Origin: Rhizobium sp. Root708
GTDB lineage: Bacteria > Pseudomonadota > Alphaproteobacteria > Rhizobiales > Rhizobiaceae
NCBI RefSeq assembly: GCF_001429725.1
Contig: NZ_LMHV01000034.1
Span: 614 to 64,613, forward strand
DNA length: 64,000 nt
Direction: 5' to 3'
In this document: positions 54,952 through 57,361 of the stretch, in pieces
Position numbering within the stretch: position 1 is the first letter of the stretch
Layout: every line of letters starts with the position of its first letter
Translations under genes and position numbers: made by a program
The notes under the pieces: model-generated
Database searches by the model: none
Seen by the model: the letters and a program-made list of their open reading frames with translations, nothing else
Told to the model about the DNA's origin: nothing

Positions 54952-55710
54952 TCAAGAGGATTGCAACACATCCGAATTATCTTGATCTTCCGACGGCGCG
55001 CGGTCGAAAAATGCAAAGAGCAGGAAGCCGAAAGCGAAGCCACCGATATGCGCATCCCATGCGATCGGCTGATCGCTGGTTCCGATCAGGGGTATCCCAA
55101 CTGCGATAAGGATATTTCCGGCGAACCAGAACAGGATAAACATCGCAACGGTGCGGCTGCGCAGCGCAAGAGGGATTGATAGGCGCGGATTGAGGTGCGC
55201 GGGGCCCGGCGGTCTGCGCTCGGGCGGGAAGGCGAAGCGGCACGCCGCTCCCATCAGCGCGGAGACGACGCCCGACGCACCGATAAGTACGGTGGCTCCG
55301 CCCCAGTTCAAGCCCGCATGCAGAGCAGCCGAGGCAATGGCTGAAAGAACCCAGAAGACCACGTAGCGCGCGACGCCTATCCTGCGGGCAACCGGGGCAC
55401 CGAAGGCCATCAGCCACAGTCCGTTGAAGACGATATGCTCGACACCGCCATGCAGCAGCGAATAGGTCACCGGCGTCCAGTAAAGCTGCGGCCCCTGCTC
55501 CGCCAATGCGGTGGCATAGCGCAACGGGATGAAGCCGAAATTGAAGAAAAGCCAGTCGGTGGCCGCTTCGGAAAGCAGCAGGGCCTGAACCGCGTATATC
55601 GCCACAAGTACGGCGATGCTCGCCAGCACGGGGCCGGGAAGATTGAAAATCGGGGTGCGCTGTGGCGACGGGGGTTCCGCTGTCGCTTGCGGTTCGACCG
55701 AATCGTCCAT
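54952..55710 (-). CDS. Rhomboid-family intramembrane serine protease
   Basis: 252 residues with six or seven membrane helices. The nucleophile is in LIGASGVVSALMGAA (GASG) near residue 148, and the catalytic histidine in WDAHIGGFAFGFLL near residue 220; the asparagine region (IVFNGLWLMAFG) is present. Rhomboids cleave single-pass membrane proteins. The ATG at 55710 has a GAGGG site. Between it and its likely promoter lies a strong terminator hairpin, which may attenuate it. Confidence 0.9.
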   Translation of the reverse strand: MDDSVEPQATAEPPSPQRTPIFNLPGPVLASIAVLVAIYAVQALLLSEAATDWLFFNFGFIPLRYATALAEQGPQLYWTPVTYSLLHGGVEHIVFNGLWLMAFGAPVARRIGVARYVVFWVLSAIASAALHAGLNWGGATVLIGASGVVSALMGAACRFAFPPERRPPGPAHLNPRLSIPLALRSRTVAMFILFWFAGNILIAVGIPLIGTSDQPIAWDAHIGGFAFGFLLFAFFDRAPSEDQDNSDVLQSS

Positions 55711-55758
55711 CAACAGCCCTCGCTTGCTTCGAAAGGCAGGCTTACAGGAGCGACAGAC

Positions 55759-55792
55759 AAAAAAAAAGCCGTTCGGCATGAAGCCGAACGGC
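55759..55792 (-). terminator. Strong rho-independent terminator upstream of the rhomboid gene
   Basis: A perfect 10-bp stem (GCCGTTCGGC 55768-55777 with GCCGAACGGC 55783-55792, loop of five) is followed on the minus strand by nine consecutive T (55767-55759). No gene is upstream of it on that strand. Confidence 0.85.
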
Positions 55793-55864
55793 CCGCTGGG
55801 CGCCCCTCCCCCGAGATGACCTGCGCACCAGCAATCTGTGCTGAACTTCCGCAACCGGAAGCGA
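55768..55864 (-). ncRNA. Candidate small RNA or rhomboid-gene leader with attenuator
   Basis: On the minus strand a promoter-like pair, TTGAGC (55900-55895) and AACTAT (55877-55872), with 17-base spacing, is followed by about 100 bases ending in the terminator at 55792-55759. No reading frame is visible inside. It may be a discrete small RNA, or the 5' part of the rhomboid transcript with premature termination 49 bases before its ATG. Rhizobial small-RNA families (such as the alpha-r groups) should be compared. Confidence 0.45.
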
Positions 55865-55995
55865 TGACTGGATAGTTGCATGCCGCGCCGCGCCGCTCAA
55901 CCGTAACCACTTCTTAACCTTAACCGCCGCGATCTGGCATGAAAAACGCATCGGACCTCTTATCGACGGCCATGAGGGCCGTGTTTTGAACCGGA

Positions 55996-56649
55996 ATGAA
56001 ACAGATCGGCCAATCCATGCGTCTCAGGGCAACCATCGACATTTTTGAGTATTGGAACCGCATTCGCGGCACGGAACTGGCGCCCTTGCGGTCTCAGATA
56101 GAGCCTCGGGAAGTCCGCCACATCCTCGCAAATCTCTTCATGCTGGAGAAGACGGAGGCCGGGCGGATCGTCTTCAGGCTGGCCGGAACGAAGATCTGCG
56201 ACCTTTTCGGTCGGGACCTTGGAGGTGGTGGCCTCGCCGAGCTCTGGGCACATGGCCAGGAAGACATCGAGAGCACGGCCGCCGGAATTATGGACCATGG
56301 CATACCGGCCCTGCTGAACGCCACGGGCTACAGCACCGCAGGACACCGTGCGACGTTCGAGATCATTCTCCTCCCGCTGCGTTCGGCAGACGGCGGCAAC
56401 GACAAGCTACTGGGCGCAATCGCACCTGCAACCGCCGCGAGCTGGCTCGAGGTGGTGCCGCTGCAGTTCCTGGCCCTTGACCGCAGCCGACTGCTTCACG
56501 AACCGCTGGCCCGCCAACTCGATACCCTGCAACCGCCTGCCCCGGCTCCGGCCACGCGCCCCGCGTCGATCTCGGCAACGCTGCAGCGTTTGATGTCTGG
56601 ACTCCTGCACCGTCCGTCGGACGGAGATGTGCCATTTCGGCACTACTGA
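55996..56649 (+). CDS. PAS domain-containing protein (PAS_5 / DUF1488-like sensor)
   Basis: 217 residues. A single PAS-type domain covers about residues 15-165: FEYWNRIRGTELAPLRSQIEP then RIVFRLAGTKICDLFGRDLGG and a strand-rich end. This matches the PAS_5 family of Alphaproteobacteria, which has no catalytic output domain. The Pro/Ala-rich tail (about 175-195) is a linker. It is 100 bases before the PilZ gene on the same strand, a sensory arrangement often repeated in rhizobia. Confidence 0.8.
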   Translation: MKQIGQSMRLRATIDIFEYWNRIRGTELAPLRSQIEPREVRHILANLFMLEKTEAGRIVFRLAGTKICDLFGRDLGGGGLAELWAHGQEDIESTAAGIMDHGIPALLNATGYSTAGHRATFEIILLPLRSADGGNDKLLGAIAPATAASWLEVVPLQFLALDRSRLLHEPLARQLDTLQPPAPAPATRPASISATLQRLMSGLLHRPSDGDVPFRHY

Positions 56650-56749
56650 TTGTGCCGCACCGAACGTGCATCCGTCGGGTTGGAACAACCTTCTGTTAAT
56701 GGATTGCGGATAAAGATCGCGTATAAGTTATTTGCAAAGAAGCCCTTTA

Positions 56750-57361
56750 ATGCACGCGTTCCAGCAAGCTCAGACGCAACGGCCTGCGCCTCGCCCTGAA
56801 CAAGGTGCTTTTCAGCGCGTCCCTATCAATATGCAGGGACGCTTGATGCTGGCCAATTACGAAGAATATGAGTGCCTCGTGATCGACATGTCACCGGGCG
56901 ATATGTACGTCACCTGCCAGGGACGTCCGCGCGCCGGTGAACGTGTGATTGCCTATATCGATCACCTCGGCCGCGTCGAAGGCTATGTCCAGACCATCGA
57001 CGGACGCGGCTTTACGATGTCGATCAACGCTACGGAGCGTAAGCGCGAGAAGCTTGCCGCTCAGTTGACCTGGCTCGCGAACAAGCACGAACTGGGCCTT
57101 CCGGAAGATCGCCGCCACGACCGATTGACGCCGAGAGAGACGAAGACCGAAATCACGCTCGAGGACGGCACCAAGTATCTGGGCCGCATCATGGACCTTT
57201 CCTTGTCCGGCGCTGCTGTCGATGTCGAAGTGCGGCCGGCGATCGGGACGCCCGTTCGGCTTGGCAACATGCGCGGCCGCGTCGTGCGCCACTTCGTGGA
57301 AGGCGTCGCCATCGAATTCCTTTCTGTGCAGTCGCGCGAAACGCTCCGCGAGTTTCTCTAA
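56750..57361 (+). CDS. Tandem PilZ-domain protein
   Basis: 203 residues. Two PilZ-like modules: an N-terminal one (RVPINMQGRLML, VIDMSPGDMYV) and a C-terminal one with the c-di-GMP signature DRRHDRLTPR followed by MDLSLSGAAVDVEV. The second has the arginine and D/NxSxxG residues that bind c-di-GMP; the first is divergent (DMSPGD). It probably senses c-di-GMP. The ATG at 56750 is chosen; an earlier TTG at 56732 gives six more residues. Confidence 0.85.
   Translation: MHAFQQAQTQRPAPRPEQGAFQRVPINMQGRLMLANYEEYECLVIDMSPGDMYVTCQGRPRAGERVIAYIDHLGRVEGYVQTIDGRGFTMSINATERKREKLAAQLTWLANKHELGLPEDRRHDRLTPRETKTEITLEDGTKYLGRIMDLSLSGAAVDVEVRPAIGTPVRLGNMRGRVVRHFVEGVAIEFLSVQSRETLREFL

What the first reader, a model, noticed from the sequence alone, without database searches (positions are those of the whole stretch)
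55700..55920. Terminator with no upstream gene: small RNA or attenuated rhomboid leader
A ten-pair stem with nine T residues on the minus strand lies 49 bases before the rhomboid ATG, and a plausible promoter (TTGAGC-N17-AACTAT) lies 100 bases further upstream with no reading frame between. Either a small RNA of about 100 nt is made here, or rhomboid expression depends on read-through of this terminator.
Basis: partly seen in the sequence, partly recalled or inferred. Interest (0 to 1): 0.5.

Follow-up and report, generated by a model that had tools for sequence, protein, structure and literature searches.

The report
Conserved small RNA beside cell-cycle gene
Between a membrane-protease gene and a likely cell-cycle gene, Rhizobium carries a stretch that appears to make a separate RNA of about 107 letters; it is kept in nearly every Rhizobium genome searched and in many relatives, and has no entry in the Rfam catalogue.

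Summary
In detail: a 10-bp stem with nine U on the minus strand, 48 nt before the rhomboid ATG, and the named promoter. The promoter is unremarkable alone; comparison supports it. Model R1 matches 144 of 148 Rhizobium genomes, all 144 directly upstream of rhomboid; three of the other four have a shorter version, one a deletion. Model R2 gives 60 hits of 34.6 bits or more in 121 family genomes, all 60 at that place. A block TTAAGGTTAA..TGGTTT..TTG(-35)..TGn(-10) lies at a near-fixed distance upstream in 43 of 43 genus loci. The stems covary. A -10-like hexamer for rhomboid follows the U-tract in 39 of 43, and a crude test finds no antiterminator. The RNA goes with the divergent neighbour, an orthologue of the CtrA-module gene mopJ: 58 of 88 loci with mopJ adjacent (65 by a looser call), 2 of 28 without. 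In Brucella melitensis the same gap holds BSR0739, seen on Northern blots and reported as transcribed independently (PMC4365724). So most likely a stand-alone sRNA gene, not a rhomboid attenuator. Targets unknown; a role beside MopJ/CtrA is inferred.

The parts
55759..55865 (-). predicted small RNA, about 107 nt; 5' end inferred 7 nt after the -10, 3' end at the U-tract
   Evidence: ends inferred, not mapped
55898..55923 (-). conserved upstream block TTAAGGTTAAGAAGTGGTTACGGTTG; holds GTTAA-N7-TTA (55918-55904), an exact reverse match to the S. meliloti CtrA consensus TAA-N7-TTAAC
   Evidence: consensus from a passage of PMC3616915; CtrA binding not shown; exact in only 1 of 43 genus loci
55895..55900 (-). 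-35 element TTGAGC
   Evidence: TTG in 43 of 43 genus and 56 of 57 family loci
55872..55880 (-). extended -10: TG-C-AACTAT
   Evidence: TG in 42 of 43 genus and 49 of 57 family loci; A at hexamer position 2 in 43 of 43 and 53 of 57; T at position 6 in 32 of 43 and 21 of 57
55845..55862 (-). 5' hairpin H1
   Evidence: fold; covariation
55838..55843 (-). unpaired motif CAGCAC, candidate seed
   Evidence: [CT][AG]GCAC in 31 of 43 genus (5.3 expected) and 37 of 61 family RNAs (7.5 expected)
55794..55833 (-). variable middle hairpin H2
   Evidence: single-sequence fold only; not in the consensus fold
55759..55794 (-). intrinsic terminator: 10-bp stem (12 with two outer G-U pairs), U9
55742..55747 (-). 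putative rhomboid -10 (CTGTAA) just after the terminator; no good -35 seen
   Evidence: CT[AG]TA[TA] at this offset in 39 of 43 genus loci; 0.036 expected per region
54952..55710 (-). rhomboid protease gene (by order, the orthologue of SMc01001)
   Evidence: Pfam Rhomboid 1.7e-20; SMc01001 = peptidase S54 in PMC8175422
55996..56649 (+). divergent single-PAS_5 protein, taken as the mopJ orthologue (SMc01000, Atu1754, BMEI0738)
   Evidence: Pfam PAS_5 2e-36, only family found; orthologues and single-domain description from PMC4432633
55935..55949 (+). conserved TGGCATGAAAAACGC on the mopJ strand (GG-N10-GC, sigma54-like spacing)
   Evidence: 43 of 43 genus loci at the same offset from the block, 49 of 57 family loci; the pattern occurs 4 times in the 64 kb, both strands; function unknown

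Best explanation
This is a gene for a stand-alone small RNA. Transcription starts near 55865 from its own extended -10 promoter, whose -35 abuts a TTAA block (CtrA-like), runs through a 5' hairpin, a CAGCAC linker and a variable hairpin, and stops at the terminator 48 nt before rhomboid. Rhomboid is transcribed from a promoter of its own just downstream. The RNA shares a divergent control region with the mopJ orthologue. Shown by sequence and comparison: conservation, the promoter-plus-terminator unit, covariation, association with mopJ adjacency. Shown by others for the Brucella positional homologue: transcript detected, no RT-PCR product joining it to its neighbours, more in exponential phase, level affected in an hfq mutant. 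Inferred: the transcript in Rhizobium, the rhomboid promoter, CtrA or cell-cycle control, and action by base pairing through the CAGCAC region on trans targets.
For: R1 matches 144 of 148 genus genomes, 144 of 144 best hits on the rhomboid strand 46-153 nt before the rhomboid match; three of the four misses hold a shorter diverged form. R2: 60 of 60 hits of 34.6 bits or more in 121 family genomes lie on the rhomboid strand 49-234 nt before it. Same gap in two genomes of another family. Block of 14 or more of 19 positions in 43 of 43 genus loci at a near-fixed offset and 57 of 61 family RNAs. Covariation score 0.285 against 0.140 shuffled, 0 of 500 as high. Rhomboid -10-like hexamer. RNA with mopJ adjacent 58 of 88 (R2 alone) or 65 of 88 (R1 or R2), without 2 of 28. 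BSR0739 lies between BMEI0738 and BMEI0739, orientation <- -> ->, Northern-verified (BMEI0738 as MopJ orthologue).
Against: No expression data from Rhizobium were available. The -10 is weak; outside the genus only TG and the A are well kept, T at position 6 in 21 of 57. The 5' part without the terminator folds no better than shuffles (median z -0.13 genus, -0.29 family). Two covariation measures are weaker: pairs changed on both sides 7 against 5.2 (15 of 500 as high), further pair types 19 against 16.2 (21 of 500). The rhomboid -10 pattern is missing in 3 of 43 genus loci and was found in only 17 of 76 family regions with a terminator, and its -35 is poor. 23 of 88 family loci with mopJ adjacent gave no RNA match. 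Sequence homology to BSR0739 was not tested. No pairing signal with mopJ or rhomboid start regions.
Confidence: 0.8

Rival explanations
1. Attenuated rhomboid leader: rhomboid is transcribed from the upstream promoter and its expression is set by read-through of the terminator.
For: Same strand, terminator 48 nt before the ATG; always next to rhomboid; G144 keeps the RNA with rhomboid although no mopJ was detected; the proposed rhomboid promoter lacks a good -35.
Against: -10-like hexamer after the U-tract in 39 of 43; longest complement to the terminator 5' arm equals shuffles (6.07 against 6.10 genus; 5.98 against 6.10 family, a crude test); 26 of 28 rhomboids without adjacent mopJ lack it (not corrected for ancestry); the G226/OV677 deletion leaves rhomboid and the hexamer; no RT-PCR product joining BSR0739 to its flanks in Brucella.
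Confidence: 0.1
2. The sRNA mainly acts in cis on its divergent neighbour mopJ, or its promoter only sets up the mopJ control region, the RNA being a by-product.
For: RNA presence goes with mopJ adjacency; a conserved block lies between the two divergent promoters.
Against: The RNA has covarying stems and a conserved motif, unlike a by-product; no pairing with the mopJ start region (median z 0.23 in 43 loci, 0 below -2); no antisense overlap.
Confidence: 0.15
3. The stretch encodes a small protein or leader peptide.
For: A frame is open through the hairpin from 55881 into rhomboid.
Against: An ATG frame of 10 aa or more lies inside the RNA in 1 of 43 loci; RNA lengths range from 92 to 125 nt.
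Confidence: 0.03

Closest known systems
BSR0739 of Brucella melitensis (PMC4365724)
   Same: Lies between the mopJ orthologue BMEI0738 and BMEI0739 with the same orientation; Northern-detected; reported as transcribed independently of its neighbours.
   Different: Predicted length 160 nt against about 107; the authors did not list it among their sRNAs conserved in other alphaproteobacteria; sequence identity was not tested here, and that BMEI0739 is the rhomboid is inferred from synteny.
Rhizobial trans-sRNA families (SmelC023, SmelC289, SmelC291, SmelC671; suhB/mmgR)
   Same: Short intergenic RNAs kept broadly in Rhizobiales, several with typical terminators (SmelC023, SmelC289, SmelC671) and extensive microsynteny (PMC3927594).
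   Different: Other neighbours where stated (DNA polymerase I for SmelC023, prolyl-tRNA synthetase for SmelC289); no Rfam match here. Whether SmelC165 or SmelC151 is this RNA could not be settled: their neighbours are in a supplement not readable here.
Candidates MH_s10 and MH_s13 of Mesorhizobium huakuii (PMC5596092, Table 1)
   Same: Their strand and the strands of their flanking genes fit the pattern seen here.
   Different: The identity of the flanking genes was not visible, so sameness is neither shown nor excluded.
BjrC68 (RF02353)
   Same: One sub-threshold hit at the RNA position in L189 (22 bits, cut-off 39).
   Different: The three genomes over the cut-off show no rhomboid or PAS_5 gene in the 3-kb stretch around it.

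Membership tests
Stand-alone bacterial sRNA gene | own promoter | tested here: met
   conserved block, -35 TTG and TG of an extended -10; activity not shown
Stand-alone bacterial sRNA gene | own intrinsic terminator, no conserved coding frame | tested here: met
Stand-alone bacterial sRNA gene | detected transcript of that size | not testable with these tools
   no Rhizobium expression data; BSR0739 Northern in Brucella only
Hfq-dependent trans-acting sRNA | Hfq dependence and pairing with trans mRNAs | not tested
BSR0739 | position and orientation between the mopJ orthologue and the downstream gene | tested here: met
   downstream gene as rhomboid inferred
BSR0739 | sequence homology | not tested
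   no named Brucella sequence was fetched
Transcription attenuator / riboswitch leader | downstream gene lacks another promoter | tested here: inconclusive
   -10-like hexamer after the U-tract in 39 of 43 genus loci but without a good -35; 17 of 76 family regions
Transcription attenuator / riboswitch leader | competing antiterminator | tested here: not met
   longest complement no better than shuffles (crude test)
Transcription attenuator / riboswitch leader | leader stays with the gene it controls | tested here: not met
   2 of 28 rhomboids without adjacent mopJ have it
Rfam families incl. suhB/mmgR | score at or above the gathering threshold | tested here: not met
   window: one tRNA only; region: suhB 12.5 bits against 41; 20 related loci: two sub-threshold hits
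BjrC68 | score above cut-off and the context of its members | tested here: not met

The most novel reading that the evidence does not exclude
An sRNA family kept in at least two families of the order is the RNA arm of the MopJ-CtrA cell-cycle module: one CtrA-type operator between divergent promoters makes both MopJ and an Hfq-linked RNA, giving these alphaproteobacteria a post-transcriptional output of the same switch.
Probability: 0.25. Interest if true: 0.75.

Novelty: new member of a known kind. Interest (0 to 1): 0.52.

Why it matters
It turns a single-window curiosity into a conserved RNA family that can be tested in standard rhizobial strains, gives an uncharacterised Brucella sRNA a family-wide positional homologue, and ties it to mopJ, whose product promotes CtrA accumulation in Caulobacter (PMC4432633). 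sRNAs that touch the rhizobial cell cycle have been described before (EcpR1, PMC4414408; the sRNA of PMC5928217, abstract in a search listing); this would be a further one with a wide spread, if the link holds.

Tried and rejected
Rfam gathering and permissive scans: no family at its threshold. BjrC68: followed and dropped. Attenuation: no antiterminator in a crude test. Coding: rejected. Pairing with mopJ or rhomboid start regions: no signal (median z 0.23 and 0.45). Folding energy of the 5' part: not unusual. Off-locus hits: R1 hits in G120, G132, G137, G151 (E 0.002-0.006), the second R1 hits in G222 and G016 (about 35 bits), and R2 hits in G046 and G051 (40.1 and 35.8 bits) are taken as chance terminators, so R2 scores up to about 40 bits outside the family are not safe. 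Four of 26 R1 matches are short antisense matches to the palindromic stem.

Literature: no paper on this RNA in Rhizobium was found. One search (rhomboid, sRNA, Sinorhizobium, intergenic) gave 0 papers; of 34 papers, the 15 listed do not hold the word rhomboid; some searches were the further searches. Locus-tag searches found PMC4432633 and PMC4365724. The S. meliloti, A. tumefaciens and R. etli surveys were seen only as passages or sections and their supplements could not be read, so a listing there is not excluded; M. huakuii MH_s10 and MH_s13 have a fitting strand pattern and are not excluded either.

Rows dropped before counts: A1 leaves out 4 of 53 distinct genus loci (L019, L077, L083 with an insert, L086 with a deletion). 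The 43-locus genus set leaves out 6 close relatives of other rows among the 49 (L003, L004, L058, L065, L066, L096). The 61 family RNAs are hits, non-hits left out; the 57 are those with a block of 14 of 19 or more. A3 holds 52 of 76 terminator-bearing family regions (24 doubtful ones left out), and the 76 come from 116 regions. R2 was trained on many of the loci it then finds; the absence of other hits as strong is the independent part. The whole-genome RNA searches score only pre-selected candidates with strict filters. mopJ adjacency was judged by eye; 'not adjacent' includes 'not detected at E 1e-8'. The test is not corrected for shared ancestry, and G145's contig starts about 300 bases before its RNA match.

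Full report
What is there. On the minus strand of a Rhizobium contig, between a divergent PAS_5 gene (55996-56649, +) and a rhomboid gene (55710-54952, -), lies a strong intrinsic terminator (10-bp stem, U9 at 55767-55759). Upstream of it is a TTGAGC-N17-AACTAT promoter with an extended -10 TG; a start 7 nt after the -10 (55865) would give an RNA of about 107 nt. The terminator stands out by itself; the promoter does not.

Conservation in the genus. The rhomboid-upstream DNA matched 24 of 61 genomes by BLAST, all in the genus. Aligning 53 distinct genus intergenic regions showed conserved islands: an upstream block, an RNA with a 5' hairpin and a GUUCAGCACA-like linker, and the terminator. A covariance model from 49 of these (R1) matched 144 of 148 genus genomes at E 0.01 or better. 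Rhomboid is in 148 of 148, and 144 of 144 best R1 hits lie on its strand, 46-153 nt before the rhomboid match. Second hits occur in four genomes: G253 and G272, where an insert splits the RNA, and two weak sites elsewhere in G222 and G016. Of the four genomes without a match, G229, G230 and G288 carry a shorter diverged form with block and terminator, and G226 a deletion. L086, R. rhizogenes OV677, shows the same deletion and may be the same genome. Counting the shorter forms, 147 of 148 keep the RNA.

Beyond the genus. Rhomboid is in 116 of 121 family genomes at E 1e-20. R1 gave 45 matches in 87 further rhomboid-upstream stretches at E 1 or better, all on the rhomboid strand, many of them weak. 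A second model from 52 deeper sequences (R2) gave 60 hits of 34.6 bits or more in 121 family genomes; 60 of 60 lie on the rhomboid strand 49-234 nt before it. Below that, general terminators appear. Two genomes of a different family of the order have it between rhomboid and a PAS_5 gene (42.8 and 41.3 bits), but two chance terminators reach 40.1 and 35.8 bits.

Structure. For H1 plus terminator stem, 92.3% of cells pair (84.8% shuffled), 68 cells are changed on both sides against 23.4, and the covariation score is 0.285 against 0.140, each with 0 of 500 shuffles as high; pairs with a double change (7 against 5.2, 15 of 500) and further pair types (19 against 16.2, 21 of 500) are weaker; sliding the partners lowers all measures. 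In a sub-clade the 5' hairpin seems to sit in another register (fold of L087), which fits the 12 to 13 sequences that break the outer H1 pairs. The energy of the 5' part is not unusual, so structure there rests on covariation. A CAGCAC-like motif is enriched (31 of 43 against 5.3 expected; 37 of 61 against 7.5).

Promoter. TTAAGGTTAA-N4-TGGTTT-N3-TTG is found at 14 or more of 19 positions in 43 of 43 genus and 57 of 61 family RNAs; in the genus its printed offset is -57 or -56 throughout. In the family the offset varies. The window scores 18, and elsewhere in the 64 kb the best is 14, once. TTG, TG and the A of the -10 are at fixed spacing (43, 42 and 43 of 43; 56, 49 and 53 of 57), the last T less so (32 of 43; 21 of 57). 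Within the block GTTAA-N7-TTA, the reverse of the S. meliloti CtrA consensus TAA-N7-TTAAC (PMC3616915, passage), is exact in the window and in 2 of 57 family loci; 7 of 8 positions match in 40 of 43 genus and 47 of 57 family loci. This is CtrA-like, not proof of CtrA.

Probably not a rhomboid leader. In the genus a CT[AG]TA[TA] hexamer follows the U-tract at one offset in 39 of 43 loci (0.036 expected per region; absent in L070, L081, L089); I saw no good -35 for it. In the wider family it was found in 17 of 76. L030-L032, which have no R1 match, keep a CTATAT or CTATAA before rhomboid. A crude search finds no antiterminator complement beyond shuffles. With R2 alone the RNA is present in 58 of 88 loci where the mopJ orthologue is adjacent, with R1 or R2 in 65 of 88; where mopJ is not adjacent or not detected it is in 2 of 28 either way (not corrected for phylogeny). 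The two are G144 and G145, the latter cut by a contig end.

Neighbour and literature. A single PAS_5 domain beside rhomboid fits the orthologues of MopJ: SMc01000, Atu1754, BMEI0738 (PMC4432633, passages); SMc01001 is a peptidase S54 (PMC8175422, passage). In Caulobacter MopJ promotes CtrA accumulation and is induced by (p)ppGpp and GcrA. B. melitensis BSR0739 lies between BMEI0738 and BMEI0739 with the orientation seen here; it was detected by Northern blot, gave no RT-PCR product with its neighbours, was abundant in exponential phase, and its level was affected in an hfq mutant (PMC4365724, section 19 and passages). The authors report no Rfam similarity and name three other sRNAs, not this one, as conserved in a related alphaproteobacterium. 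The review PMC9751625 (passages) adds no function. That sequence was not fetched, so homology is by position only.

Papers seen. PMC3927594: outline, section 12 part 1, section 17, passages. PMC4365724: section 19 and passages. PMC10469942: abstract and outline. PMC3738593: abstract, outline, passage. PMC2873474, PMC4432633, PMC4414408, PMC8175422, PMC4201532, PMC9751625, PMC2881028, PMC5596092, PMC3616915: passages only. PMC2573895 and PMC4433202: term look-ups without a hit. PMC5928217: abstract start in a search listing. Recalled, not from a call: the sigma54 consensus, the general -10/-35 consensus for alphaproteobacteria, and that alpha-r families are in Rfam.

Verdict. An ordinary kind of thing, an sRNA gene, but an unannotated, deeply kept one with a suggestive neighbour. 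Shown: conservation, unit architecture, covariation, association with mopJ adjacency. Inferred: expression in Rhizobium, a separate rhomboid promoter, CtrA control, trans pairing.

Noticed in passing
window 55935-55949 (+): TGGCATGAAAAACGC on the mopJ strand has GG-N10-GC spacing like a sigma54 site; the pattern sits at one offset from the TTAA block in 43 of 43 genus loci and is present in 49 of 57 family loci. The last bases differ from the recalled TTGC.
   Followed up: partly
window 56732-57361 (+): The PilZ gene after mopJ corresponds by order to SMc00999, which PMC4414408 lists among genes with a CtrA site upstream that change in an ecpR1 mutant.
   Followed up: no
L019, L077, L083, L284, L285: In one Rhizobium sub-clade a partly palindromic element of roughly 100 nt sits inside the middle of the RNA, with promoter block and terminator kept.
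   Followed up: partly
L086 and L289 (G226): A natural deletion removes the -10 and RNA body but leaves the TTAA block, the terminator and the rhomboid hexamer: a ready-made comparison strain.
   Followed up: partly
L162, L173, L191, L212, L213 and others: In 22 of 76 deeper family regions the RNA can form a GAGC-loop-GCUC hairpin shortly before the terminator, with a G-rich loop and GA/GA flanks in some.
   Followed up: partly
L056 (G144): RNA and block persist beside rhomboid although no mopJ was detected in the genome at E 1e-8.
   Followed up: no
L203, L213, L173, L179, L197: A GATTC (GANTC methylation-type) site follows the terminator in these family members.
   Followed up: no
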